Below, in pieces: positions 18,578 to 32,105 of a stretch of 64,000 bases of DNA. This DNA is from Pseudomonadota bacterium. Lineage in GTDB: Bacteria; Pseudomonadota; Alphaproteobacteria; Rhizobiales; Hyphomicrobiaceae. The position numbers and the translations under genes are program-made. The stretch spans positions 248,001-312,000 of the forward strand of contig JAFECE010000002.1 of assembly GCA_018242295.1 (NCBI GenBank), in the 5' to 3' direction. A model generated the notes under the pieces. The model was not told the DNA's origin, did not search any database, and was given only the letters and a program-made list of their open reading frames with translations. Within the stretch, counting starts at the first letter, position 1; each line of letters starts with the position of its first letter.

Positions 18578-19117
18578 TCACGGCTTCACATCGATCCAGA
18601 TGAAGCCGTCGCGGTTCGGCATGTGCACGGCCGCCAGCGTCTTCGCGTTCATCTCATCGCCTTCGCCGATGACGCCGTTGGCGGCAAGCAGGTAAGCTGT
18701 CAGAGCGTAGGTCTCATTGGCGGTGAGTGTCCCGGCGGCTGCAGGCGGCATGCTACGCCGAACGAAATCGAAGATCGTCGGCGCGAACGGCCAGTAAGAT
18801 CCGATGGCCTTGCTCGGATAGTCGCCCGATGGAGGCTTCGGCTCGCTGACAAGTTCTTCCGCCGTGCCGCCTTCGCCGCGCAAACCGTGACAGTCCGCAC
18901 ATTTCTGCTCGTAGATCACGCGGCCGTCTTTCGCGGCGCCTTTTCCAGGCGGCAGTCCACGCCCATCGGCGAAAATCGTGCGATCCCATTTCGCGATTTC
19001 GCCGGTGCTCAACGGCGTACCGAGACGGGGAGCCTTGACGTCCGTATCGGCGGCAATGGCCGACGTCGCCACAACCGGAACGAAAATCGCAGCCGCGGCG
19101 CGCCTAAGCATAGACAT
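18578..19117 (-). CDS. soxD: SoxD-type c-type cytochrome
   Basis: A 179-aa exported monohaem cytochrome c. After the signal peptide (cut near AIAAD), the haem site CADCH is at 73-77 (QKCADCHGLRGEGG), with a likely Met ligand in RRSMPPAAAG. It overlaps the end of soxC by 14 bases, so it should be the electron-accepting subunit of the SoxCD sulfane dehydrogenase. It has one haem and is shorter than the di-haem SoxD of Paracoccus. The start could be either Met at 19117 or 19111. Confidence 0.85.
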   Translation of the reverse strand: MSMLRRAAAAIFVPVVATSAIAADTDVKAPRLGTPLSTGEIAKWDRTIFADGRGLPPGKGAAKDGRVIYEQKCADCHGLRGEGGTAEELVSEPKPPSGDYPSKAIGSYWPFAPTIFDFVRRSMPPAAAGTLTANETYALTAYLLAANGVIGEGDEMNAKTLAAVHMPNRDGFIWIDVKP

Positions 19118-20396
19118 GGCTGATCGTACCATCTTCATCGACGGCCCAGCAGACGATAGCATTGTAATGAAAGTAGCCCTCACGCCCGCGCTCTTTCACC
19201 AACACGTCGCGTTCGGGTTGGACGTATCCGGTCTCGTCGGTCGCACGGCTTTTGAGGAGCGCAGACTGTCCATTCCAGGCCCACGGAGATCGAAATCGCG
19301 TGAAGCACTGGGCCATCACAGGCTCCTGCAAATGCGCCTCGGCCCACGATTTTCCGCCATCCGCCGAAACCTCGACCTTTGCGATCTTTCCGCGCCCGCT
19401 CCAGGCGATTCCGCGAATTTCATAAATATTCGCGCCGTGCATCTTCTGCCCCGGCGACGGCGAAGTGATCAGCGATTTCGCATCCATGACGAACGTAAAC
19501 ATCCGTGCTTTGCCCGAAGGCTGAAGCTCGGTGTATTTCGCCGTTTCGTTGCGCGTCATTGCGGGAGCATCGGTGACATGCAGACGCCGCAACCATTTGA
19601 CGTTCGTGATACCTTCCCAGCCCGGTACGATGAGCCGGATCGGATAACCGTTCTCCGGCCGCACGCGCTCGCCGTTCTGGTAGAGTGCGACGATCGCATC
19701 ATCCATCAGCTTCGCGAGCGGCAGACTGACGTTCAGAAGCCCGGCATCCGCCCCTTCTGCGATCACCCACGAAGCCTTCGCATCGACGCCGGCTTCGTCG
19801 AGCAGGATCGAAAGCGGCACGCCCGTCCATTCTGAGCATGAAACAAGCCCATGAAAATCGCCAACAGGCCGCTGGATCGGTTCTTCATGCCACCCGGCAT
19901 TGCTGTTGCCGCCGCATTCGATGAACAGAAAGCGCGAGCGCATCGGATATCGAAGCAGGTCGGAGACCGTGAATTCCAGCGGCTGCCGCACGAGCCCATG
20001 GATGACGAGCCGATGCGCGGCCGGATCAATGTCGGGGACCCCGTCATGATGGCGCTCGAAGTGCAGGCCGCTCGGCGTGACGATACCCTCGAGATCTTCG
20101 AGCGGCGTCCAGGAAACGCCATCACCCGCAGGCGTGCGGTTGCCGCCTATGTTGCGAGCGACGTACTTCTCGTATTTGGATGGCGTCCCATAGCCGCTGA
20201 AAGGGAGCCCAGTCCTATGGATCCAGGAAGGGTCGGTCGGGTCTTCGGCCCGAGGTTTCGCCTCTTCTTCTGCCCCGAGCGATGTGGCCGTCTGCGCTGT
20301 CGCCAGAACGAGGCCGCCCTGAAGAAAAAGGCGGCGATGCAAAAGCCCGCCGCCCGCAACTGGCGCTAAATCGTCTTCTGTGAGCTTGCCGGCCAT
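19104..20396 (-). CDS. soxC: SoxC, molybdopterin subunit of sulfane dehydrogenase
   Basis: A 430-aa sulfite-oxidase-family enzyme. In the Sox pathway SoxCD oxidises the sulfane sulfur on SoxY by six electrons. The N-terminus has a Tat-like signal (HRRLFLQGGLVLATAQ). The molybdenum ligand Cys161 sits in FIECGGNSNAGWHEEPIQ, and the substrate-side sequence PGWEGITNVKWLRRLHV is present; the C-terminal domain is the Mo-co dimerisation fold. SoxC is favoured over a sulfite dehydrogenase (SorA) because of the SoxD-type cytochrome and the SoxYZ-like carrier on either side. The carrier gene ends 23 bases upstream. Confidence 0.92.
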   Translation of the reverse strand: MAGKLTEDDLAPVAGGGLLHRRLFLQGGLVLATAQTATSLGAEEEAKPRAEDPTDPSWIHRTGLPFSGYGTPSKYEKYVARNIGGNRTPAGDGVSWTPLEDLEGIVTPSGLHFERHHDGVPDIDPAAHRLVIHGLVRQPLEFTVSDLLRYPMRSRFLFIECGGNSNAGWHEEPIQRPVGDFHGLVSCSEWTGVPLSILLDEAGVDAKASWVIAEGADAGLLNVSLPLAKLMDDAIVALYQNGERVRPENGYPIRLIVPGWEGITNVKWLRRLHVTDAPAMTRNETAKYTELQPSGKARMFTFVMDAKSLITSPSPGQKMHGANIYEIRGIAWSGRGKIAKVEVSADGGKSWAEAHLQEPVMAQCFTRFRSPWAWNGQSALLKSRATDETGYVQPERDVLVKERGREGYFHYNAIVCWAVDEDGTISHVYA

Positions 20397-20419
20397 GCGG
20401 CCGTTCCACTGGCGTGATG

Positions 20420-21241
20420 TCAGGATTGGTTCGGAGCCGAATTGCCCTTGAACACGTTGCCTTTCGAATCCTCTGCCTCGACGCTCATAACATCGGCCGG
20501 GCTGCCCTGATAGGTGAAGCGGAAATTCGGGTTCTCGCTGATCGAGATGCCGCCCGTCATTGTGAAGACGGTTTTGCCGCCGGTCTTCACTGCCACCTTG
20601 TCCACGAAGTGTGTCGGGATATAGAGGCCGGTCAGCTGATCCATCTGCATACCGGAGCTGTTCGGATGCCGGATCATCACCTGCGCTTCCTGCGCTTTGG
20701 CGTCCTCAGGATCCTTGAAGGCCGTTATGACCCTCATCTTGCCCAGCGTCTTTGCCGCTTCCTCGGGGTCTTTACCGGCGGGCGCTGAGCAGCCGCCAGA
20801 GGCTTTGACGAACTTCATCGTCATGAACAGCTTGCCGTCGTTTGTCTCGGCGATAGCACGCACGTTCGAATATTGATCGATGCGGACGCGCGTTGCCAAG
20901 ACGCGCTCACCCGTGCCGGCCGCGTCGCCGTAAGCGAAGCTCGCCACGACGGGGGAGGGGTTCTTGTCGATGACGAGCGTCAGCGATTTCACATCCTTGG
21001 CGAATTCGGCCGGCAGGCGAACGGTCAGCGGAACTGTTGACGCGTCTTCTGCCCGATACGGGGCCTCGAGCAGCACTTTTCCGGTCCCATCCGCGACGTC
21101 GCGGGTACCGAAAAGGTCTGTCCGAACGCCATCCCAAATCACGGATGTATCGTCGGCCCGTGCGCTCGGCTGCGCCGACACGAGACCAAGGATTGCCGCC
21201 GCCCCGGCGAAAACACTGGCCCGGATAAAGTTGCTCTGCAT
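20420..21241 (-). CDS. SoxYZ-like fused sulfur carrier protein (quinoprotein dehydrogenase-associated type)
   Basis: A 273-aa exported protein in which a SoxY-like N-terminal domain and a SoxZ-like C-terminal domain are fused. A good ribosome site (GGAGGA) is 5 bases before the ATG at 21241, and a signal peptide ends near ARADD. Cys151 in KASGGCSAP corresponds to the sulfur-carrying cysteine at the end of SoxY, here internal because SoxZ follows. It matches the family named quinoprotein dehydrogenase-associated SoxYZ-like carrier, usually near PQQ alcohol dehydrogenases; here it leads an operon with soxC and soxD. No soxA, soxB or soxX lies in the window. Confidence 0.88.
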   Translation of the reverse strand: MQSNFIRASVFAGAAAILGLVSAQPSARADDTSVIWDGVRTDLFGTRDVADGTGKVLLEAPYRAEDASTVPLTVRLPAEFAKDVKSLTLVIDKNPSPVVASFAYGDAAGTGERVLATRVRIDQYSNVRAIAETNDGKLFMTMKFVKASGGCSAPAGKDPEEAAKTLGKMRVITAFKDPEDAKAQEAQVMIRHPNSSGMQMDQLTGLYIPTHFVDKVAVKTGGKTVFTMTGGISISENPNFRFTYQGSPADVMSVEAEDSKGNVFKGNSAPNQS

Positions 21242-21418
21242 CGCTTCCTCCGCTTGCCGCCTTGAGGGCGGTCTCACGCGTTCAAACCTCAACCCCGAAT
21301 AAAATACTACATTAACATGGTGATCAGGTCATCAATTTCGCAAGACGCAGCTTCGCAACCGCGGTCGATATCCTAAAGCACGGCATTTGCAGCATATTAT
21401 TTCAGGTTTGCCCGCGGG

Positions 21419-23203
21419 TCAGGCTACGGCGGTCCGGTTCAGCCAAGCCCGCCAGCCCCCGAACTCGGTGATATCTTCGGCGCCGCGAAGCGCATGGCTT
21501 TCGCACAGGAAGCCCTTAACTTGGCGGCCGTCGTCAAGAATAAGGGTGCCGAAGCTGAGCGGCGGCGGGATTAGCGCCACGAATGAGCCGAAAGCGGCTT
21601 CGTCCATTTCCCAGATTTCGACTTCTATGCCACCGGGTCCGCTGCCGTCGAAGACAAGGCCCGGCTTCGGCGGCGTCGTTCCTGGCAAGGCATAAAGCCG
21701 GTACCCCTCGGCGGTACGGGACGTTTCGCGATAGATCGCGTTACGCTCCGTCAGCTGGCCATTGAGAGGCTGGCCCCTGAGATGTGCGCCGACAACGGCA
21801 ACCTCAACGGTTCGCTTCTTGACCGGCCGTGCCGTGGCGGGTGCAGTGCCGGATAAGGCCGCTTGCGTAGCGCCGAGCTTTGCGCCATCGAGCGCGCGAT
21901 GGAGTATGTCGCCCATTGCCGCGAGCTGTCCGTCGGAGAATGCACGGCCGATCAACGTTACGCCGAACGGGATGCCGTCATCGCGAAAGCCGGCCGGAAC
22001 GGCGAGCGCCGACAGATCAAGCAGATTGACGAAATTCGTATAGGCGCCGAGGTTGGAATTGAGCCGGATCGGGTCGGCCAGCATGTCGGCGATCTTGTAG
22101 ATCGTGCCGGCTGTCGGCAGCACCATCACGTCCATGCGTTTCCATTCTGCATCCGCGGCGCGGCGAAACTCCGCCAGGCGATAGAAGCCCTCGAATGCCG
22201 AGAGAGCGGATTTGTTTTTCCCGCTTCGAATGACGTCCCCGACGACGGGATTGAGATCGTTCTCGTTCAGATCGTCGGCGGCGAATAGGCGTTCGGCGAC
22301 CCATGGACCGTCATAGAGCAGCTCAGCCGTATCGCGAAAAGGTGCGAAGTTGAACGGCGTGATCTCCGCACCAAGTTCCGCAAGACGATCGATCGTCTGA
22401 TGATAGAGGCGCTGGTACTCGCTATCTTCAAAGAACGATAGCGGCGCATTGGGAATGCCGGCTCGTAGCGGCCGCGCGAAATCTGTGACCGCGAACGGCG
22501 GCGCGTCCGCTCGTGCGTAGCAGTCGTCCTTGTCGAACGCGATGGCTGTTTCTGCAATCTTTGCCGCGTCTGCAACGGTGAGCGCAAAAATCGAGACGGC
22601 ATCTTGGCTCTTGCACGCAGGCACGACGCCACGCGTCGAGATCATGCCCTTGGTCGGCTTCAGACCGACGATGTTATTGAAGGCCGCCGGGACGCGCCCC
22701 GAACCTGCGGTGTCGGTGCCGAGCGAAAACGAAACGAGGCCCGCGGCGACTGCGACAGCCGATCCCGAACTCGATCCGCCCGAAATGTAATCCGCATCGA
22801 AAACGTTCGTTGGAATGCCGTAGGGCGAGCGGGTGCCGTTCAATCCGGTCGCGAACTGGTCGAGGTTCGTTTTGCCGATCAGGATCGCGCCAGCGGCTTC
22901 GAGCCGTTCGACGACGATTGCCGAGCGCTCCGGCGTATAGGCAAACGCCGGGCAAGCACATGTCGTGGGCATTCCACCGACATCGATATTGTCCTTCACC
23001 GCAAACGGGATGCCGTAAAGGGGGCCACGCGGCGCATGGCGGACGCGATAGAGAACGCTCGCCTTATCGCGCAGCGCGATCCAGTCCGGCGCAACGCCCC
23101 TCTTGCCAATGCGCGCGAAGACCTCTTCGATGATGGCTTCGGGCGTGGCTTTCCCTTGCTCGTAGAGCGCGGTGAGATGAGCGATGTCGAGCGATAAGGT
23201 CAC
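21419..23203 (-). CDS. atzF: Allophanate hydrolase
   Basis: Amidase-signature enzyme of 594 aa that splits allophanate into two ammonia and two CO2. The GTG start overlaps the stop of the carboxylase (GTGA). The amidase domain shows the Ser-Ser-Lys system: Lys in LIGKTNLDQFATG and the serines of GGSSSGSAVAVAAGLVSFSLG. The C-terminal 120 or so residues form the second domain typical of full-length allophanate hydrolase (VGAHLRGQPLNGQL and later GYRLYALPG). It is the last gene of the operon headed by the guanidine riboswitch, so allophanate here most likely comes from carboxyguanidine. Confidence 0.94.
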   Translation of the reverse strand: MTLSLDIAHLTALYEQGKATPEAIIEEVFARIGKRGVAPDWIALRDKASVLYRVRHAPRGPLYGIPFAVKDNIDVGGMPTTCACPAFAYTPERSAIVVERLEAAGAILIGKTNLDQFATGLNGTRSPYGIPTNVFDADYISGGSSSGSAVAVAAGLVSFSLGTDTAGSGRVPAAFNNIVGLKPTKGMISTRGVVPACKSQDAVSIFALTVADAAKIAETAIAFDKDDCYARADAPPFAVTDFARPLRAGIPNAPLSFFEDSEYQRLYHQTIDRLAELGAEITPFNFAPFRDTAELLYDGPWVAERLFAADDLNENDLNPVVGDVIRSGKNKSALSAFEGFYRLAEFRRAADAEWKRMDVMVLPTAGTIYKIADMLADPIRLNSNLGAYTNFVNLLDLSALAVPAGFRDDGIPFGVTLIGRAFSDGQLAAMGDILHRALDGAKLGATQAALSGTAPATARPVKKRTVEVAVVGAHLRGQPLNGQLTERNAIYRETSRTAEGYRLYALPGTTPPKPGLVFDGSGPGGIEVEIWEMDEAAFGSFVALIPPPLSFGTLILDDGRQVKGFLCESHALRGAEDITEFGGWRAWLNRTAVA

Positions 23204-26200
23204 GCCGTCGCCTCCGCATGTTCTTTCAAAATCACGAGCGTCTGACCGAGCGCCACCGGCCGACCCTCGGCGCACCGCACCTCGTGAACAATACCGCTTT
23301 GCGTCGCCGTCACCGCCATCTCCATTTTCATGGATTCAACGATAATCAGCGTCTCACCCTCGGTGACCTTGGCCCCGGGCTCGACAAGGACTTTCCAAAC
23401 GCTTCCGGGCACCGGACTTTCGACGGCCGTGGCCCCGAGTGGCAATACTGAAGCAGCATCGTTGTCGTCGCCGATATCCGATGCGGCTGCTGCACCGTCT
23501 TGGTCGACTTGCTGCCAGCGCGCCCGCTCCGCCTCGAATGCCGCCTGCTGACGCGACTTGAACGCCCCGATCGCCTCGGCATTGTCGCGAAGGAAAGCCT
23601 GATAATCGTTAAGACGAAACGTCGTCTCCTCGAATGTAACGTTCGCCTGGCCTTCGAGAAATCCGTCGCGGAACGCCAGCAGCGCTTCACTTGAAACGGG
23701 ATAGAAGCGGATTTGATCGAAGAAACGCAGGAGCCACGGCGAACCCTCTTTGAAGGCATCCGTTGTCCGGTATGTATTCCAGACTTGGCACGTTCGCCCG
23801 AACAGCTGATACCCTCCGGGTCCTTCCATGCCGTAGATGCACATGTAGGCGCCGCCGATGCCGACGACGTTATCCGGCGTCCATGTGCGCGCAGGATTGT
23901 ATTTCGTCGTAACGAGCCGGTGCCGCGGATCGACTGGCGTCGCAACCGGCGCGCCGAGATAGACGTCGCCAAGACCGAGAACGAGATACGTCGCGTCGAA
24001 CACAATCCGCAGCACGTCCTCGATGGAATCGAGGCCGTTGATGCGCCGAATGAACTCGATATTCGACGGACACCACGGCGCATCGGGTCGGACGCCGTGC
24101 ATGTATTTGTCGATTGTCTTCTGCACCGCTGCGTCGTTCCACGACAACGGCAGATGCACGATGCGCGACGGAACCTCGATGTCGCTCAAGTCTCCGAGCG
24201 AATCCTCGATCCTCGACAGCTCGGCCAGCAGGTCTTCGAGCGGCAGCGTCGCGCCGTCGTAATGCACCTGCAGCGACCGGATGCCGGGCGTAAGATCGAC
24301 AATGCCGGGAAGCTTTCGTTTTTCGAGAGCAGCCATCAGTGCATGCACGCGGAAACGCAGGGTGAAGTCGAGGACGATCGGTCCATATTCGACCAGCATA
24401 TAGGCGTCGCCCGCCCGCCGGTAGACAACGCGCGGTTTGTCGCCTGATGCCTCGCGGCCGCCGACGATGCAATCATCCGCGCCCCATTTCGCGTGCGGAA
24501 ACGATGGCGCCGCGATTGGTCTCAGCATCGCAATTTCCGCATTCTGTTTCGTGAGACGCGCTGCGGCCTCTGCCGGAGTGAGACGCACGAAGCGAATTTT
24601 GTCGCCCGGCCGGAGCTGCCCCATCTTCCAAAGTTCGGCCTGGATGATCGTCGCTGGACATACGAAGCCACCGAGCGATGGGCCGTCGGGACCGAGAATG
24701 ACAGGCATGTCGCCGGTGAAATCGATCGTGCCGATGGCATAGGCGTTGTCGTGAATGTTGCTCGGATGCAGTCCGGCTTCGCCGCCGTCGGTGCGCGCCC
24801 AGACTGGCTTCGGTCCGATCAAGCGAATGCCCGTCGGGTTCGAATTGTAATGAACCTCCCAGTCGCTGGCGAAGAACGTATCGATGTACTCGGGCGCGAA
24901 GAAATCGGGCGCGCCATGCGGGCCGTAGAGGACGCCGATGTCCCAGGTGTGGACGAGGCGAGGTTTGAGCTCTTCCGGAAGGCACGCCGAAGGAAAGCTC
25001 GTCGCGTCCTTGCCGATATGAAGGACGTCGCCGGTCATGAGCACGCGGCCGCCGTGGCCGCCAAACTTCCCGAGCGTAAACGTCGATTTGCTACCGAGAT
25101 AGGACGGAACGTCGATGCCGCCGCGAACCGCGATGCAGGCGCGTACGCCCGGTCCTGTGACGCCGCCGATTTTTAGAACTTGTCCCGCCTTCACCTGAAT
25201 GGCTTGCCAGTAGCCCGCAGGCGCGTCTTCGATCGTCGCCGTCAACTCGGCGCCCGCGAGACAAATGACAGCATCGGTGTTGAATTTGAGCGAAGGCCCG
25301 GCGAGCGTCGTCTCGATCCCGGCGGCGCCTTCCTCGTTGCCGACGATGCGATTGGCCAGACGAAACGACAGTGCATCCATCGGCCCGGACGGCGGCACGC
25401 CGACCGCCCAATAACCGATGCGTCCCGGCCAATCCTGGATCGTCGTCTGCGTGCCAGGCGATAGAATTTCGATGGTGTCCGCTTTATAGGCGAACGTATG
25501 CAATGTCCGCGTCAGCACTTCGCCATTCGCGAACACGCTGGCGCCTGCGAGCTGCCGTAGATAATCGAGGTTGGTTTCGAGGCCGCCGATGCGCGTTTGA
25601 TCGAGCGCCGATTTGAGGCGCGCCAACGCATCCGTGCGTGATGTGCCGTTGACGATGATCTTCGCAATCATCGGATCGTAGTAGGGCGAAACCTCCGACC
25701 CACTTTGCACCCACGTCTCTATGCGGGCGCCAGCCGGCCACGAGACTTCTGTCAGCCGGCCGGAGCTTGGGCGGAAATCGCGCGCAGGGTCTTCCGCATA
25801 AAGCCGGACTTGGATCGATGCGCCTTTCGGCGAAATTGCGGCTTGATCGAGAGGCGGCAGTTCTCCTGCCGCCTGCCGCACCATCCACTCGACGAGATCG
25901 GTGCCTGTGACCTCCTCGGTGACACCATGCTCGACCTGAAGCCGGGTATTGACCTCAAGGAAATAGAATTCGTCCGTCTCGGAATCGTAGAGATATTCGA
26001 CCGTGCCGGCGCTTTCGTATTGGACCGATTGTCCAAGACGCCGCGCCGTTTCCCACAGCGCCGCGCGCGTCTTCTCAGGAAGATTGGGCGCGGGCGTCTC
26101 CTCGATGACCTTCTGATTGCGCCGCTGCGCCGAGCAATCGCGCTCGCCGAGCGAAACGACGTTGCCGCGGCCGTCGCCGAAAATCTGCACCTCGATGTGG

Positions 26201-26817
26201 CGGCCGCGCGCGACGTACTTCTCGATGAAGATGCCTGCGTCCTTGAAGTTGTTGCGCGCGAGACGCTCGACACGTTCGAACATCGGCGCGATTTCTTCCG
26301 CGTTCGAAACGAGCTGCAGCCCGATGCCGCCGCCGCCCGCCGTGCTCTTGATCATCACCGGATAGCCGATGCGCTGGGCTTCGAACTTCGCATGCTCCAC
26401 ATCGCGGATGAGGCCTGAGCCCGGCGCGAGAGGCACGTTCGCTTGCAGCGCGAGTTCACGCGCCTTGTGCTTCAATCCGAAGGCTCGCATGTGCTTCGCC
26501 TTCGGACCGATGAAGACAATGCCGGCCGCTTCGCACGCCTCCGCGAAATCCGGGTTTTCCGACAGGAAGCCGTAGCCCGGATGAATGGCTTCCGCGCCTG
26601 TCCTCTTCGCGGCGTCGAGGATCGCATCGAACTTTAGATAGCTTTCGGCAGCAGGCGAGGGACCGATGGCGACAGCTTCGCCGGCCTGCATGACATGCAT
26701 CGAATGCCGGTCGGCTTCAGAGTACACGGCGACGCTCGCAATTCCCATGCGATCGAGTGTTCTGATGACACGGCACGCGATGGCGCCGCGATTGGCTATT
26801 AGAACTTTGCGGAACAT
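23200..26817 (-). CDS. Biotin-dependent urea/guanidine carboxylase
   Basis: A 1205-aa multidomain carboxylase. Domains in order: biotin carboxylase (about 1-450, with FRKVLIANRGAIACRVIRTL and the ATP-grasp KSTAGGGGIGL), a KipA-like (AHS2) carboxyltransferase part (about 470-780), a KipI-like (AHS1) part (about 800-1040), and a C-terminal biotinyl domain with Lys in VESMKMEMAV. The family is annotated as urea carboxylase, but members behind guanidine-I riboswitches have been shown to be guanidine carboxylases, producing carboxyguanidine. The riboswitch at 31.2 kb and the two adjacent deiminase-type proteins make guanidine the better prediction. The substrate-specificity residues were not checked. 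The start follows GGGAG and fits the family N-terminus. Confidence 0.92.
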   Translation of the reverse strand: MFRKVLIANRGAIACRVIRTLDRMGIASVAVYSEADRHSMHVMQAGEAVAIGPSPAAESYLKFDAILDAAKRTGAEAIHPGYGFLSENPDFAEACEAAGIVFIGPKAKHMRAFGLKHKARELALQANVPLAPGSGLIRDVEHAKFEAQRIGYPVMIKSTAGGGGIGLQLVSNAEEIAPMFERVERLARNNFKDAGIFIEKYVARGRHIEVQIFGDGRGNVVSLGERDCSAQRRNQKVIEETPAPNLPEKTRAALWETARRLGQSVQYESAGTVEYLYDSETDEFYFLEVNTRLQVEHGVTEEVTGTDLVEWMVRQAAGELPPLDQAAISPKGASIQVRLYAEDPARDFRPSSGRLTEVSWPAGARIETWVQSGSEVSPYYDPMIAKIIVNGTSRTDALARLKSALDQTRIGGLETNLDYLRQLAGASVFANGEVLTRTLHTFAYKADTIEILSPGTQTTIQDWPGRIGYWAVGVPPSGPMDALSFRLANRIVGNEEGAAGIETTLAGPSLKFNTDAVICLAGAELTATIEDAPAGYWQAIQVKAGQVLKIGGVTGPGVRACIAVRGGIDVPSYLGSKSTFTLGKFGGHGGRVLMTGDVLHIGKDATSFPSACLPEELKPRLVHTWDIGVLYGPHGAPDFFAPEYIDTFFASDWEVHYNSNPTGIRLIGPKPVWARTDGGEAGLHPSNIHDNAYAIGTIDFTGDMPVILGPDGPSLGGFVCPATIIQAELWKMGQLRPGDKIRFVRLTPAEAAARLTKQNAEIAMLRPIAAPSFPHAKWGADDCIVGGREASGDKPRVVYRRAGDAYMLVEYGPIVLDFTLRFRVHALMAALEKRKLPGIVDLTPGIRSLQVHYDGATLPLEDLLAELSRIEDSLGDLSDIEVPSRIVHLPLSWNDAAVQKTIDKYMHGVRPDAPWCPSNIEFIRRINGLDSIEDVLRIVFDATYLVLGLGDVYLGAPVATPVDPRHRLVTTKYNPARTWTPDNVVGIGGAYMCIYGMEGPGGYQLFGRTCQVWNTYRTTDAFKEGSPWLLRFFDQIRFYPVSSEALLAFRDGFLEGQANVTFEETTFRLNDYQAFLRDNAEAIGAFKSRQQAAFEAERARWQQVDQDGAAAASDIGDDNDAASVLPLGATAVESPVPGSVWKVLVEPGAKVTEGETLIIVESMKMEMAVTATQSGIVHEVRCAEGRPVALGQTLVILKEHAEATA

Positions 26818-26822
26818 CGGCC

Positions 26823-27470
26823 TCAGCTCCCCTTGGCCCAGATGAGAACTTCGATCGGCGTGGGGTTGTAAGCGTTGCAAGGATTGTTGAGCTGCGGACA
26901 GTTCGAGATCAGCACGATGACGTTCATGTGCGCGGTCATTTCGACGTATTTTCCCGGTGCGGAGAGCCCGTCCTCGAACGTCAGGCCGCCATCCGGCGTC
27001 ACCGGCACGTTCATGAAGAAATTGATGTTGTGGCCGATGTCGCGCTTCGAAAGTCCGTATTGCTCATTCTCGGCGATGGCGAGCAGATAGCTGTCGCGGC
27101 ACGCGTGCATCGACTTCTTCTCGAGTGCGTAGCGAACCGTGTTGCTCTCCGTCGCGCAGGCGCCGCCGAGCGTGTCGTGGCGGCCAACCGTATCGGCCGT
27201 GATCGTCAGCATCGGACGGCAGACATCCGAAAGAAGCACCGATCCCGCTGTCAGATAGATATTCCTTTGTTCGCGGATGGTGTCGGAAGCCGAGTACCGT
27301 TCGCCCGGATCGTCGGCATTGAAGAACAACGTATCCGCAGCCTGATTTCCCTCGAGATCAAGAAGGCGGAGCGTCTGGCCCTTTTGAACGATATGCATCC
27401 AGTAATTGCCGGCTGGAATGACACGGCGATAAATCGCGTCGACGTCGCGCAGAGTGCTTTCCTTGATCAT
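26823..27470 (-). CDS. Urea-carboxylase-associated protein (DUF1989), probable carboxyguanidine deiminase subunit
   Basis: A 215-aa cytoplasmic protein of the DUF1989 family. By length it fits urea-carboxylase-associated protein 1; the numbering is uncertain. Members of the pair have been shown to act together as carboxyguanidine deiminase (CgdA/CgdB), turning carboxyguanidine into allophanate and ammonia. Visible family features are [37 protein letters not shown] and the C-terminal [20 protein letters not shown] with its Cys. The ATG overlaps the stop of the upstream paralogue (ATGA) and the carboxylase gene starts 5 bases after its end. Confidence 0.88.
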
Positions 27471-28201
27471 TGGTGTGTGTCTCCGCAGCAGCCGGCGAGG
27501 AAGATGCGATTGTTTTCGAAGCCGCGCGCGTTCTCAGGCGCCGAGAGCCGGGCGGGATCATCAAGGCCAGCGGGTGGTCCTTCGAATATTTCGAATTGCG
27601 CCGGCTTCCTCGGGTAGGTGTTCGCGAAGTTCAACGGATGCGGGCACGTGTGAAGGAGAACGAGGGTATCGATCTCGAAACGCAACTCGACCTGCGCGCC
27701 CGCCTTCGCGGCCGTCGTGTCGAGCGACATTGCACCATCGGAGGCGACCGCAATCTTGCTGAACCAGTTGACGTTCGCCGCAAGATCGCGCCGGGTCAGT
27801 CCATATTTGGCGCCCTCGACGAGAAAGCTGTCGTGGCCGTTCTGCTGCCAGTCGTTGCGCGCCGTCTGATAGCTCTTTTCGCCCCACTTCCGCGCGATGA
27901 TCGCCTTTGTCGTATTGCCGGAAACCGTGTCGTGCCAGCCGAAGGTATCCGACACCACCGAGCAAAAGATGCGGCCCATATCGGAATAGAGGCAATGACC
28001 GGCCGTAATTTTAAACGTGTGCTGACATTTGAGCGTGTCGGGCGCGTTATAGCGTTCGAGTAGGTTCTGCGGATTGTAGAAGAGCATGCCGATGTTGGCG
28101 CCGCCCTCGACGTCGGTAAGCCGCAGTCGGGTGTTTCGGCGCATGAGCAGCGACCAGTGCTTACCACCGGGCAGCGTATCGCTGTAGATCAGGTTCCCCA
28201 T
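27467..28201 (-). CDS. Urea-carboxylase-associated protein (DUF1989), second probable carboxyguanidine deiminase subunit
   Basis: A 244-aa paralogue of the next gene, matching the longer of the two associated families. Shared features are [34 protein letters not shown] and, near the C-terminus, [25 protein letters not shown]. The ATG at 28201 has GGGGAG 8 bases upstream. Expected partner of the 215-aa protein in the deimination of carboxyguanidine to allophanate. It lies between the ABC transporter genes and the enzyme genes, 114 bases after the ATPase gene. Confidence 0.88.
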
Positions 28202-28315
28202 TTCCAACTCCCCACGCAGAGGCATCCTTTGAAGACGCTGATTGCGTGCCAGTCCGGGCCGTCCCGGGTTAGCGAGATGCCGTCGAAGGTCGTCCCTCGC
28301 GGCAAGCGTGATGGT

Positions 28316-29155
28316 CTAGGACCGCGGTGCAGAATGCCCATGACGCGTTAGAACGCCCGGGCTCCCTGCAACTTTTTTGGGCCAGATCTCGATGTCCTTG
28401 GTGACCGTCGCACCCTTCGGAACCGTGGGCGCACTCGGAGGCGGTGTCGGGATATCGGCCGAGAGCCGCGCGCCATAGCGCTCGGCCTCTTCGGGGCGGT
28501 TGCGAGGCCGCTCAAAAGCGATGATGCGCGTACCGAGTTCGAAAGCTTCGCTCAGGTCGTGCGTGACCATGACGACGGTTAGCGACGATTCATTCCAGAT
28601 GCGCCGCATCAGGACGTGAATGTCCGACCGGATGCCGGGATCGAGTGCGCCGAATGGTTCGTCCAGCAGCAGCACCTTTGGCCGCCGCATCAGCGCCTGC
28701 GCCAGCGCCAGCCGCTGCTGCATACCGCCCGAAAGCGCCGACGGATATTTCTTCTCCTGCCCCGCAAGTCCGACGGCGGATAGAAGTGCGCCCGCTTCTT
28801 CCTCGGCTTGCTTGCGCGCGCGTCCGAACAGGCGGCCGAAAGGACCGGCCTTTTCGAACTCTCGCCCGATGATGACATTGCCGAGCACGGTCAGGTGCGG
28901 AAAGACGGAATAGCGCTGGAAGACGACGCCTCGATCCGCGTCGGGTTCGGGTTTGAGCGGAAGACCATCGACGAGAATGCTTCCGCGCGTCGGCCGCTCT
29001 TCACCGAGCAACATTCGCAGGAACGTCGTCTTGCCACATCCTGATGGACCGACGAGCGCCACGAACGAGCGTTCCACGATCTCGAGATTGATCTGCTCGA
29101 GCACGACGTGATCGCCGTATTCCTTCCAGACTTTGTCGAAGACGATGGCGTTCAT
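28316..29155 (-). CDS. ABC transporter ATP-binding protein (nitrate/taurine type), guanidine/urea operon
   Basis: A 279-aa ATPase. Walker A is GPSGCGKTTFLRML, the signature is LSGGMQQRLALAQAL, and Walker B is VLLLDEPFGALD. It belongs to the SsuB/TauB/NrtD class that serves small solutes. The C-terminal 40 or so residues are Pro/Thr-rich beyond the conserved core. Its ATG overlaps the permease stop by 4 bases. With the permease and binding protein it should import guanidine or a related nitrogen compound. Confidence 0.92.
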   Translation of the reverse strand: MNAIVFDKVWKEYGDHVVLEQINLEIVERSFVALVGPSGCGKTTFLRMLLGEERPTRGSILVDGLPLKPEPDADRGVVFQRYSVFPHLTVLGNVIIGREFEKAGPFGRLFGRARKQAEEEAGALLSAVGLAGQEKKYPSALSGGMQQRLALAQALMRRPKVLLLDEPFGALDPGIRSDIHVLMRRIWNESSLTVVMVTHDLSEAFELGTRIIAFERPRNRPEEAERYGARLSADIPTPPPSAPTVPKGATVTKDIEIWPKKVAGSPGVLTRHGHSAPRS

Positions 29156-29970
29156 GCTGTTCTCGCTTCGGCAAACCAGGGAAACGCCCTGTGCTGGAGA
29201 AGCCGGAGGCCGAGATCCATCAGGAAGGCCAGCAGCGTGATCCACACGACATAGGGCAGGATCACATCCATCGAGAGATACCGGCGAACGAGGAAGATGC
29301 GGTAGCCGAGACCTGAATCGGCGGCGATCGCCTCGGCGGCAATCAGGAACAGCCACGCCGGACCGATTTCCAGCCGGACGGAATCGATCAATCGCGGCAG
29401 GATTTGTGGCAGCACGACTCGCAAGGCGATCTGCGGCGTCGACGCCCCGAGCGTTTGTGCTTTGATGAGCTGCTCGCGCGGAATGTCTTTAACCCGGAGG
29501 GCAATGTCGCGAATGAGCTTCAGCGACGTGCCAACGACGATCAGAGTGATCTTCGAAGCTTCGCCAAGCCCCATGACGATGAAAAGAATGGGAAGCAAAG
29601 CGAGTGGCGGCACCATCGATAACACCGACACGACCGGCCCGAGCGTCGCTCCCATAACCGGCAACAGTCCGATAACGATGCCGAGAACCAGTGCGAAAGC
29701 AGTCGAGATCGTAAGGCCAATGACGAGGCGCGTCAGGCTAGCCGACGTATCGTTCCAAAGCAGGTAATCGCCGGTGCGCGGATCGGGCTTCATCGCATAA
29801 GCGTCGATCGCTTCCCCCATCCTCGCGAACGATGGAAGTAGCTTGTCGTTCGGATTTTCGGTCAGACGAATGTCGGAAGCGATGATGTAGGTGAGTAAAA
29901 GCAACGCGAATGGTAGGAAGGCGAGCGCTAGACGCCAGGTCTTGTCCGGCCGGTAGTTGATAGCGCGCAT
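29152..29970 (-). CDS. ABC transporter permease (nitrate/taurine type), guanidine/urea operon
   Basis: A 272-aa inner-membrane permease with about six hydrophobic segments and the BPD_transp_1 coupling loop (EQLIKAQTLGASTPQIALRVVLPQILP). The first helix (LALAFLPFALLLLTYIIA) is followed by a periplasmic stretch of about 60 residues. It lies 38 bases after the binding-protein gene and overlaps the ATPase gene, so the three form a complete importer. Confidence 0.92.
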   Translation of the reverse strand: MRAINYRPDKTWRLALAFLPFALLLLTYIIASDIRLTENPNDKLLPSFARMGEAIDAYAMKPDPRTGDYLLWNDTSASLTRLVIGLTISTAFALVLGIVIGLLPVMGATLGPVVSVLSMVPPLALLPILFIVMGLGEASKITLIVVGTSLKLIRDIALRVKDIPREQLIKAQTLGASTPQIALRVVLPQILPRLIDSVRLEIGPAWLFLIAAEAIAADSGLGYRIFLVRRYLSMDVILPYVVWITLLAFLMDLGLRLLQHRAFPWFAEARTA

Positions 29971-30008
29971 GCGGTCGCCTTCCTTCGGTGCGTTGAGAGA
30001 AGCGGCGC

Positions 30009-31073
30009 TTAAAGCTTGCCGTCTTCCGCCTCTTTCATGAACGTCGCGTCGTAGCGGAACTTGACGTTCGCCTTGTCACCGAAGACCGTTTTGTCGGGGA
30101 ACTCGACGCCGATCGCGCCGTCGGATTTCGCCTCTTTGCCGAGAAGCGATTTCTCGAACAGGAATTTGGATACGCGTTCGGTCGTTGTCTTCAGATCCTT
30201 GCCGGTGGTGAAGGCCACGGCATCCTTCGAATCGGCGTAGAGCTTCGTCGTCGCGAGCTGTTCGTCGAAGCCTTTGAGGTCCGTGCCCGACGCCTTGGCC
30301 ATCGCTTCTTTCGACTTGGTGCCGTCTTTCATCGTCGCGAGCGTCTCGTACCAGATGCCGACGAGCGCCTTGGCGAACTTCGGATTGTCCTTGAGGACGC
30401 CCGTGTTGACGACCATGAGGTCGATGATCTCACCCGGAATCTGCGAGCTGTCGAAGACCTTCTTCGCGTCCGGCGATTCAAGGATGGTCGAGACGATCGG
30501 CTTCCACGTTACGACGGACGTGACGTCAGGAGTTTTGTAGGCGGCCGCCATGTCGGCATCGGACGTATTGACGACCTTGAGGTCCTTCTCCGCGAGGCCA
30601 ATGCTTTCGAGGCCGCGCGCGAGGAGGTAATGCGAAACCGAGAACTCGACGAGATTGACGTTCTGGCCCTTGATATCCGCAAGCTTGTCCTTGCCCTTCA
30701 GAATGACGGCGTCGTTCCCGTTCGAGAAGTCGCCGACGATCACCGCCGTTGTGTCGACGCCGCCAGCCGCAGGAATCGAAAGGGCGTCCATGTTCGTCAC
30801 GGTGACTGCGTCGAACGAGCCGGCCGTATACTGATTGATGGATTCAACGTAGTCGTTGAACTGCTTGACCTCGATATTGATGCCATACTTGTCGGCCCAC
30901 TTTTTCACGATGCCGGAATCGGCCGCATAGCCCCAAGGCATCCAGCCGACGTAAATCGACCAGGCGACCTTGAAGTCCTTCTTCTCGGCCGCCTGTGCGG
31001 GCGACAGGGCGAACCCTGTCACGACCGCGAGGCCGATCGCAGCTTTTAAAACTTGCTTGACGGAAGAGCGCAT
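30009..31073 (-). CDS. Periplasmic solute-binding protein, urea-carboxylase-region type
   Basis: A 354-aa exported binding protein: signal peptide of about 28 residues (AAIGLAVVTGFALSPAQAA), then KDFKVAWSIYVGWMPWGYA, which is characteristic of the ABC binding-protein family found next to urea carboxylase genes. The ATG at 31073 is used; a TTG two codons upstream is possible. First gene of the operon, with a leader of about 245 bases that holds the guanidine-I riboswitch. The ligand is predicted to be guanidine or a close relative. Confidence 0.92.
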   Translation of the reverse strand: MRSSVKQVLKAAIGLAVVTGFALSPAQAAEKKDFKVAWSIYVGWMPWGYAADSGIVKKWADKYGINIEVKQFNDYVESINQYTAGSFDAVTVTNMDALSIPAAGGVDTTAVIVGDFSNGNDAVILKGKDKLADIKGQNVNLVEFSVSHYLLARGLESIGLAEKDLKVVNTSDADMAAAYKTPDVTSVVTWKPIVSTILESPDAKKVFDSSQIPGEIIDLMVVNTGVLKDNPKFAKALVGIWYETLATMKDGTKSKEAMAKASGTDLKGFDEQLATTKLYADSKDAVAFTTGKDLKTTTERVSKFLFEKSLLGKEAKSDGAIGVEFPDKTVFGDKANVKFRYDATFMKEAEDGKL

Positions 31074-31211
31074 CGCCAACCCCTATCCTCGTGCTGACCA
31101 TCAGTGTCGGCCGCAAGGAACCTCGGGTCGGAAGCGGAAGACCTCGAATGAGCACGCTAGGAGCGCGCGGAGGGAGGCCTGTCCGTTCGAGCGCCGAAGC
31201 ATCTCGCGGTG

Positions 31212-31312
31212 TAGGTCTCCCGGGCTTTTATCCCGCCGTGGCTCCGCCACGCGTCACGCGCAGCGGGAGAGCCTCTCTCGGACCTGACGCTTGTGCAGCC
31301 GGAACCCTAGAG
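31212..31312 (-). ncRNA. Guanidine-I (ykkC) riboswitch
   Basis: Read on the minus strand, the leader of the carboxylase operon contains the conserved ykkC elements in order: CTAGGGTTCCGGC (starting at 31310), AGGTCCGAGAGAGGC, then ACGGCGGGATAAAAGCCC followed by GGGAGACC (ending near 31214). These are the hallmark segments of the guanidine-I class, which turns genes on when free guanidinium binds. It lies about 140 bases before the first gene. Boundaries are approximate. No clear terminator was traced downstream, so the switch may act by a weak terminator or on translation. From here to 31490 there is only the promoter region. Confidence 0.93.
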
Positions 31313-31329
31313 GCGTTATGCACGATGCT

Positions 31330-31347
31330 CTGCACGCGGCGTGCCAA
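31330..31347 (-). promoter_or_regulatory. Sigma-54 (-24/-12) promoter of the guanidine operon
   Basis: On the minus strand the sequence TTGGCACGCCGCGTGCAG has GG and GC separated by exactly 10 bases, as RpoN promoters require, and TTGGCAC matches the -24 box perfectly; the -12 box is GTGC instead of TTGC. Transcription would begin near 31319, about 8 bases before the riboswitch. Sigma-54 control fits nitrogen-source genes under NtrC. Confidence 0.7.
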
Positions 31348-31490: not shown

Positions 31491-32105
31491 TCAGACTTCC
31501 ACCAGCCGAGGGCGCGACGCTAGGAGTCCGCGCAGCATCCCTACGACACGTGACGCCGGGCCTTTGCCGCCGCATTGAATGCTGATCCGCGCGCCTTCGA
31601 AAAGGAGAAAGACTTCATCGGCAAGCTGATTGGGGTCGTGATATCGGGCAGCTCGGAAAAGCTCGACGAGCCGGTCATGCTTTCGCTGCTTGTAGGCTTC
31701 GATCACGGCGCGGGCAGGGTGGCCGGTATCGAGCTCGACGGCTGCATTCGCCAGCGCGCAGCCGCGTTCGAATTTATTCGTCAGCACGTCTTCGACAAAG
31801 TCGACCCAGGCATCGACCTGCTTTTGCGGACTATCGAGGTTCTCGGCGAGGATGCGATCGAGGACTTCGTTGCCTTCGGTTGCAAGCTGTTGGACATAAG
31901 CGACGATCAGATCGTCTTTCGATCTAAAGTGCCTGTATAGTGTCATCTTATTTGTAAGTGCAGTCTCTGCGATCGCCTCGACCCCAACTGCGTGCACACC
32001 GTGCCGGTAGAAAAGTTCGCGAGCCGCGATCAGAATCCGTTCCCGAGGCGACTTGGCAGCTCGTTGCCCCTCTGAGATTGCCTCTGATCCGCCAGCGCAG
32101 CGCAA
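31491..32105 (-). CDS. TetR-family transcriptional regulator of the RND pump
   Basis: A 204-aa repressor. The N-terminal helix-turn-helix is at about residues 20-66 (RERILIAARELFYRHGVHAVGVEAIA, TLYRHFRSKDDLIVAYV); the C-terminal ligand domain is TetR_C-like. I use the TTG at 32105 because GGAGA lies 6 bases upstream; no ATG occurs in frame before the DNA-binding domain. It is divergent from the efflux genes and two palindromic operators lie between them, so it most likely represses both itself and the pump until a toxic ligand binds. Confidence 0.88.
   Translation of the reverse strand: MRCAGGSEAISEGQRAAKSPRERILIAARELFYRHGVHAVGVEAIAETALTNKMTLYRHFRSKDDLIVAYVQQLATEGNEVLDRILAENLDSPQKQVDAWVDFVEDVLTNKFERGCALANAAVELDTGHPARAVIEAYKQRKHDRLVELFRAARYHDPNQLADEVFLLFEGARISIQCGGKGPASRVVGMLRGLLASRPRLVEV

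What the first reader, a model, noticed from the sequence alone, without database searches (positions are those of the whole stretch)
21419..31347. Urea-carboxylase operon is probably a guanidine assimilation operon under a guanidine-I riboswitch
Seen: the minus-strand leader at 31212-31312 has the conserved ykkC segments in order, followed by genes for an ABC importer, two DUF1989 proteins, a biotin carboxylase and allophanate hydrolase. Known: guanidine-I riboswitches bind free guanidinium; carboxylases behind them act on guanidine, and the two associated proteins are carboxyguanidine deiminase subunits. Inferred: the operon imports guanidine and converts it to ammonia and CO2, so the usual labels urea carboxylase and urea transporter would mislead.
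Basis: partly seen in the sequence, partly recalled or inferred. Interest (0 to 1): 0.85.

Follow-up and report, generated by a model that had tools for sequence, protein, structure and literature searches.

The report
Guanidine-eating operon with two riboswitches
A Hyphomicrobium-like bacterium carries genes that take up guanidine and break it down to ammonia, switched on by two different RNA sensors for guanidine; the system is of a known type, but the second sensor sits in a different place than in the examples described so far.

Summary
Confirmed and extended. The minus-strand leader is a guanidine-I riboswitch (RF00442, 31215-31321, 74.4 bits, cut-off 63), followed by an ABC importer, two DUF1989 genes, a biotin carboxylase and allophanate hydrolase. 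The carboxylase has Asp at the published guanidine/urea position and no urease alpha subunit reaches the cut-off in the genome. Guanidine assimilation is well supported but not assayed, and the pathway is known. Published two-riboswitch operons have it just before the carboxylase gene. Among 58 placed elements it precedes the deiminase genes in 26 (all alphaproteobacterial) and the carboxylase gene in 32 (none alphaproteobacterial), one change on the carboxylase tree. In the window's genus 17 of 22 genomes have the deiminase gene, and all 17 operons have both switches in these places; 3 of the 17 carboxylases have Asn at the specificity position beside intact deiminase genes, which the one-residue rule does not predict. 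Known kind of system; apparently undescribed placement; testable exception in sister species.

The parts
31215..31321 (-). guanidine-I (ykkC) riboswitch aptamer in the operon leader
   Evidence: RF00442 74.4 bits, cut-off 63; only such match in the genome
30009..31073 (-). substrate-binding protein of the importer (ATG at 31073)
   Evidence: TIGR03427 540 bits, cut-off 333.9, named putative urea ABC transporter substrate-binding protein
29152..29970 (-). importer permease
   Evidence: PF00528; best NCBIfam TauC-like, below cut-off
28316..29155 (-). importer ATPase (start overlaps the permease stop)
   Evidence: PF00005; frames
28254..28301 (-). guanidine-II (mini-ykkC) riboswitch between importer and deiminase genes; two hairpins with ACGA and ACGG loops
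   Evidence: RF01068 37.7 bits, cut-off 32; family alignment of 30 elements: 93.5% of pair cells standard, covariation score 0.523 against 0.139 in shuffles
28213..28248 (-). hairpin between the second aptamer stem and the ribosome-binding site of cgdA; suggestive only
   Evidence: fold, z -1.88; four other relatives folded the same way gave z -2.32, -2.41, 0.24 and -1.08; variable hairpins in genus relatives
27467..28201 (-). cgdA (UAAP1, DUF1989); likely start ATG 28201 with GGGGAG at 28208-28213
   Evidence: TIGR03425 318.7 bits; sequence read; the longer frame from 28225 is
26823..27470 (-). cgdB (UAAP2, DUF1989); start overlaps the cgdA stop
   Evidence: TIGR03424 338.9 bits
23200..26817 (-). 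guanidine carboxylase (annotated type: urea carboxylase), ATG 26817, 5 bases after the cgdB stop; Asp at the specificity position
   Evidence: TIGR02712 1891 bits; Asp at position 701 and Asp at 953 of the translation of 23200-26823, aligned with K. lactis 1330 (Asn) and 1584
21419..23203 (-). allophanate hydrolase; likely GTG start at 23203 overlapping the carboxylase stop
   Evidence: TIGR02713 775.3 bits, PF01425 and AH_C

Best explanation
This is a guanidine uptake and assimilation operon with two guanidine-sensing gates. Guanidine bound by the guanidine-I aptamer lets the operon be expressed, importer genes first. A second, guanidine-II element heads the tightly packed block cgdA-cgdB-carboxylase-allophanate hydrolase and, when it binds guanidine, exposes the cgdA ribosome-binding site; downstream genes overlap or nearly touch, so translation of the whole block probably follows. 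The enzymes turn guanidine into carboxyguanidine, allophanate, and then ammonia and CO2. Shown here: both aptamers, gene families, specificity residue, gene spacing, conservation of the layout. Inferred: ligand binding, the two-step gating, translational coupling, substrate and transport specificity.
For: Both riboswitches over Rfam cut-offs. Gene families. Asp at the specificity position. Of 48 loci with the two DUF1989 genes, 41 have guanidine-I, 33 guanidine-II, 32 both and 6 neither by Rfam listing; 0 of 11 Asn loci without DUF1989 genes have either (rescans of those 11 found none). 17 of 22 genomes of the genus have cgdA over cut-off and all 17 operons have both elements. No urease alpha over cut-off. 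In Vreelandella boliviensis both classes bind guanidine in one operon, apparent KD 44 uM (I) and 93 uM (II), and growth on guanidine raises the operon's proteins (PMC12508155, section 6 and passages).
Against: No assay. No intrinsic terminator was found after guanidine-I in the window, so the usual class-I termination mechanism is not shown. Linker pairing with the ribosome-binding site (4 pairs) is in the minimum-energy fold but not in the centroid, and the fold's z-score is only -1.59. The whole guanidine-I leader folds by energy alone into a structure that is not the aptamer. The importer's curated name is urea. Three genus relatives have Asn at the specificity position with the same operon, so the residue is not a perfect guide.
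Confidence: 0.87

Rival explanations
1. A urea assimilation operon, as the database names say: urea import, carboxylation to allophanate, hydrolysis.
For: Curated names TIGR02712 urea carboxylase, TIGR03427 putative urea transporter protein; no urease alpha over cut-off in the genome, so a urea route would be useful.
Against: Two guanidine riboswitches; Asp where urea carboxylases have Asn; urea-type loci in the survey lack DUF1989 genes and riboswitches (11 of 11); deiminases would have no substrate in a urea route.
Confidence: 0.04
2. Guanidine operon under guanidine-I alone; the guanidine-II match is a decayed or chance element.
For: The match is only 5.7 bits over cut-off, and the two outermost pairs of its first stem are not standard pairs (alignment).
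Against: Same place in all 17 operons of the genus, and 38 to 54 bits with a model built from relatives in the 15 fetched last, 13 of which are not otherwise in this set; strong covariation in the family alignment; both loops intact.
Confidence: 0.03
3. The true inducer and import substrate is another guanidino compound, such as methylguanidine, which is converted to guanidine.
For: Guanidine-II of V. boliviensis does not tell guanidine from methylguanidine (PMC12508155, section 6); relatives G001, G545 and G547 have a dioxygenase and a 312-315 aa partner in guanidine-I loci.
Against: No dioxygenase of that type in this window; the rest of this genome was not searched for it.
Confidence: 0.06

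Closest known systems
Guanidine carboxylase operon of Vreelandella boliviensis (PMC12508155: section 6 and passages seen)
   Same: Guanidine-I at the operon head, internal guanidine-II, ABC importer, cgdA-cgdB, gca, allophanate hydrolase.
   Different: There guanidine-II lies between cgdB and gca and two demethylation genes follow gca; here it lies before cgdA and those genes are absent from the window.
Operons of Raoultella terrigena, Klebsiella michiganensis and Erwinia rhapontici (as described in review PMC12186494; passages seen)
   Same: Importer and deiminase genes with guanidine-I, carboxylase and allophanate hydrolase with guanidine-II.
   Different: Deiminase genes are on the guanidine-I side there and on the guanidine-II side here.
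Urea carboxylase / urea amidolyase of Kluyveromyces lactis (3va7, 5i8i)
   Same: Homologous over the full carboxylase (1250.7 bits to 3va7).
   Different: Asn 1330 there, Asp here; no DUF1989 partners in the Asn-type bacterial loci surveyed without riboswitches.

Membership tests
Guanidine-I riboswitch (RF00442) | Covariance score at or over the gathering score | tested here: met
   74.4 against 63 bits
Guanidine-I riboswitch (RF00442) | Guanidine-dependent intrinsic terminator | tested here: inconclusive
   No terminator-like site on the minus strand between 31073 and 31215; best 10-pair anti-aptamer arm has 2 T in the next 8 bases (no null model). Not required for Rfam membership
Guanidine-II riboswitch (RF01068) | Covariance score at or over the gathering score, two stems with ACGR loops | tested here: met
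   37.7 against 32 bits; loops ACGA and ACGG
Guanidine-II riboswitch (RF01068) | Binding of guanidine; release of the ribosome-binding site | not testable with these tools
   Fold gives a linker to ribosome-binding-site pairing in the minimum-energy structure only
Guanidine carboxylase | TIGR02712 member with Asp at K. lactis 1330 and Asp at 1584 (rule in PMC11410670, passages) | tested here: met
   1891 bits; both Asp
Guanidine carboxylase | Higher catalytic efficiency with guanidine than with urea | not testable with these tools
   Needs purified enzyme
Urea carboxylase | Asn at K. lactis 1330 | tested here: not met
   Asp
Carboxyguanidine deiminase CgdA/CgdB | Two DUF1989 proteins of the UAAP1 and UAAP2 families beside the carboxylase | tested here: met
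   TIGR03425 and TIGR03424 over cut-off; equating UAAP1/2 with CgdA/B is recalled and fits the gene order in PMC12508155
Two-riboswitch guanidine operon of the Vreelandella type | Internal guanidine-II between cgdB and gca | tested here: not met
   It lies before cgdA; the cgdB-gca gap is 5 bases

The most novel reading that the evidence does not exclude
Moving guanidine-II ahead of a translationally coupled cgdAB-gca-atzF block gives alphaproteobacteria a two-threshold gate over the whole catabolic block rather than over the ATP-using carboxylase alone; and in a sister lineage of the same genus the operon's carboxylase has switched to the urea-type Asn while still carboxylating guanidine (or both guanidine and urea, in cells without urease), so that the accepted one-residue rule for telling guanidine from urea carboxylases fails in nature.
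Probability: 0.3. Interest if true: 0.6.

Novelty: new variant of a known kind. Interest (0 to 1): 0.4.

Why it matters
It corrects the labels urea carboxylase and urea transporter for a nitrogen-acquisition operon that is common in this genus (cgdA in 17 of 22 genomes). The class-specific placement of the second riboswitch is a natural experiment on how one ligand read twice, in transcription and in translation, shapes an operon; PMC12508155 calls that double control a subject for further study. The Asn-type carboxylases in intact guanidine operons of sister species make the one-residue specificity rule, which is used to annotate genomes, directly testable.

Tried and rejected
Chance guanidine-II match: rejected, because relatives keep it at the same place and the stems covary. 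A second guanidine-II-like site elsewhere in the genome (C4:98033-98073, 31.2 bits, cut-off 32; 22.2 bits with my model): left open, below cut-off, no guanidine gene beside it. Intrinsic terminator after guanidine-I: none found in the window; across 60 elements given to the tail after the best pairing arm had 4 or more T of 8 in 0 of 28 alphaproteobacterial and 6 of 32 other elements, but the arm search has no null model and I draw nothing firm from it. Energy fold of the guanidine-I leader: not informative. Hairpin between guanidine-II and the cgdA start: present in the fold of the window, but z-scores over five relatives run from -2.41 to 0.24, so only suggestive. Rfam scan of six loci in which I had seen no guanidine riboswitch (L067, L073, L076, L100, L131, L145): no guanidine family found. 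Structure prediction was not run: all families are known.

Rows dropped: I left out weak model hits away from the operon position or on the other strand (L076 20.0 bits, L075 17.6 and 16.6; L108 17.5) and kept weak ones at it (L105 18.6, L053 20.6, L097 23.5, L095 25.5). The 26 loci before cgdA are 13 unnamed and 13 named ones, the 32 others 23 and 9. Other species may also occur in both the named and unnamed sets. The tree holds 104 carboxylases; 9 partial loci, 7 further rows left out as near-copies or to save time, and any under 1100 aa were left out. Of 80 named loci (best 80 of a capped list) residue 701 could be read in 60: 53 Asp, 7 Asn; of the 7, L093 and L155 have the two DUF1989 genes and 5 show none (L113 starts close upstream of the carboxylase, so it tells little).

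Papers: Nelson 2017, Sherlock 2017, Sinn 2021 and Schneider 2020 are not held and were not read; their content is known to me only by recall and through the papers cited. That the before-cgdA placement and the Asn exceptions are undescribed rests only on literature searches in an open-access library.
Full report
Observation. Rfam gives two guanidine riboswitches in the window and nothing else over threshold: guanidine-I at 31215-31321 (-), 74.4 bits (cut-off 63), and guanidine-II at 28254-28301 (-), 37.7 bits (cut-off 32). The genes between and behind them are, in order, a substrate-binding protein, a permease, an ATPase, then guanidine-II, then UAAP1 and UAAP2 (both DUF1989), the carboxylase and allophanate hydrolase. 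From the sequence, the permease and ATPase frames overlap, cgdA and cgdB overlap, the carboxylase starts 5 bases after the cgdB stop, and allophanate hydrolase can start at a GTG overlapping the carboxylase stop. Guanidine-II starts 14 bases after the ATPase stop.

What the enzymes act on. The carboxylase aligns over its full length with K. lactis urea carboxylase. At K. lactis 1330 the yeast enzyme has Asn and the window has Asp; at 1584 both have Asp. The methods of PMC11410670 (passages) use exactly these two positions to tell guanidine from urea carboxylases; review PMC12186494 (passages) states the same rule. No urease alpha subunit reaches the cut-off in this genome, whose completeness is given as 99.99% (28.6 bits, cut-off 680), nor in G053 or G001. 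Substrate preference, transport specificity and growth were not and could not be measured.

Survey. I searched 150 genomes of the order and 398 of the phylum for the carboxylase and both riboswitches and fetched the surroundings of every carboxylase over the cut-off: 59 loci (window included) in 52 genomes. All 11 loci without DUF1989 genes have Asn, stand next to an allophanate hydrolase gene, and have no guanidine riboswitch in the fetched stretch. All 48 loci with two DUF1989 genes were read: 47 have Asp and one, L086 from the window's own genus, has Asn. Of the 48, 41 have guanidine-I, 33 guanidine-II, 32 both, and 6 neither by the Rfam listings.

Placement of guanidine-II. Of the 33, 12 lie before cgdA and all 12 are in the window's class; 21 lie between cgdB and the carboxylase gene and none of these is in the class. 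I built a model from 30 elements and scanned 61 named loci and 26 of the unnamed ones that had no Rfam-listed guanidine-II. Together 26 elements lie before cgdA, all alphaproteobacterial, and 32 before the carboxylase gene, none alphaproteobacterial. On a tree of the carboxylases the position changes once, over 55 rows. Gene order is the same in both groups, so it is the switch that differs in place. In the alphaproteobacterial layout the deiminase genes come under the second switch; in the other they do not. The six loci L067, L073, L076, L100, L131 and L145, of the sphingomonad, caulobacter and acetobacter branches of that tree as far as named, have no guanidine riboswitch family over threshold.

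Two-switch operons are not new. PMC12508155 (section 6 and passages) shows guanidine-I at the head and guanidine-II between cgdB and gca in Vreelandella boliviensis, with apparent KD of 44 and 93 uM, and calls the double control a subject for further study. The review PMC12186494 (passages) describes enterobacteria with carboxylase and hydrolase genes under guanidine-II. I found no description of the before-cgdA layout in the library searched, but four primary papers are not held.

Mechanism. Guanidine-II is proposed in the literature to act on translation and guanidine-I on transcription (PMC12508155, PMC12186494, passages). In the window the minimum-energy fold pairs the guanidine-II linker with the ribosome-binding site of cgdA through four pairs, but the centroid does not, and the fold is only slightly better than shuffles (z -1.59). 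No intrinsic terminator was found after guanidine-I, so how that switch acts here is open. My best reading is a two-step gate: importer genes need guanidine-I only, the coupled catabolic block needs both. That is inference.

Genus. Of 22 genomes of the window's genus, 17 have cgdA over the cut-off. I fetched 15 of these operons and had the other two (window, L086): all 17 have guanidine-I and guanidine-II at the same places. Two of these genomes are MAGs titled Hyphomicrobium sp. (contig lengths equal those), so the window is Hyphomicrobium or close to it. Residue 701 is Asp in 14 and Asn in 3 (L086, L192, L193).

The Asn exceptions. On the carboxylase tree Asn needs three changes: the urea-carboxylase clade, the Hyphomicrobium pair L086/L093, and Alicyclobacillus mali (L155). 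L086 and L093 are well apart (76% identical) and nested with an Asp enzyme (L092) at full support. L155 also has the DUF1989 genes and a guanidine-I match. In the L086/L093 pair cgdA and cgdB change no faster relative to the carboxylase than in the Asp pair window/L052 (amino-acid-changing differences per site: cgdA 0.146 to carboxylase 0.165 against 0.180 to 0.199; cgdB 0.121 to 0.165 against 0.132 to 0.199); synonymous sites are near saturation, so ratios to these are rough. Kept deiminases suggest that carboxyguanidine is still made, hence that the Asn enzymes still use guanidine. The alternative is that the operon has turned to urea and the deiminases serve something else. Two of the three Asn operons lack the permease gene between binding protein and ATPase; a 57-59% permease relative lies elsewhere in both genomes, in a second guanidine-I locus with another binding protein, a 2-oxoglutarate/Fe(II) dioxygenase and a 312 aa protein, which resembles the methylguanidine demethylation pair of V. 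boliviensis by context; I did not compare it with those proteins.

Verdict. The system is a known kind; the placement of the second riboswitch is a variant that marks a class, and the Asn exceptions are the most surprising by-product.

Noticed in passing
L086, L192 (= L093), L193: carboxylase position 701: Asn instead of Asp in three genomes of the window's genus, inside intact two-riboswitch guanidine operons with cgdA and cgdB kept. Alicyclobacillus mali (L155) shows the same residue with guanidine-I and DUF1989 genes.
   Followed up: partly
L192 9177-9201 and L193 5532-5556: The permease gene is missing between binding protein and ATPase; a 57-59% relative lies in a second guanidine-I locus elsewhere in both genomes.
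   Followed up: partly
L207 7323-11590 and L208 5222-9484: Guanidine-I locus with binding protein, 2-oxoglutarate/Fe(II) dioxygenase, a 312 aa protein without Pfam match, and permease; resembles the methylguanidine demethylation genes of Vreelandella by context. Relatives also in L052 (68% and 56%), L066, L080 and others. Not compared with the proven proteins.
   Followed up: partly
genome C4:98033-98073 (L003 1499-1542): Second guanidine-II-like pair of hairpins just below the cut-off (31.2 of 32 bits), beside a globin-like gene and an open frame without Pfam match.
   Followed up: partly
window 18578-21292 (-): Sulfur-oxidation-type genes (cytochrome c, molybdopterin oxidoreductase, a SoxY-SoxZ fusion frame) follow the operon on the same strand.
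   Followed up: no
window 31491-32105 (-): TetR-family regulator gene on the same strand upstream of the riboswitch; whether it bears on the operon is unknown.
   Followed up: no
window 28213-28248 (-): Extra hairpin between guanidine-II and the cgdA ribosome-binding site; variable hairpins at this place in genus relatives.
   Followed up: partly
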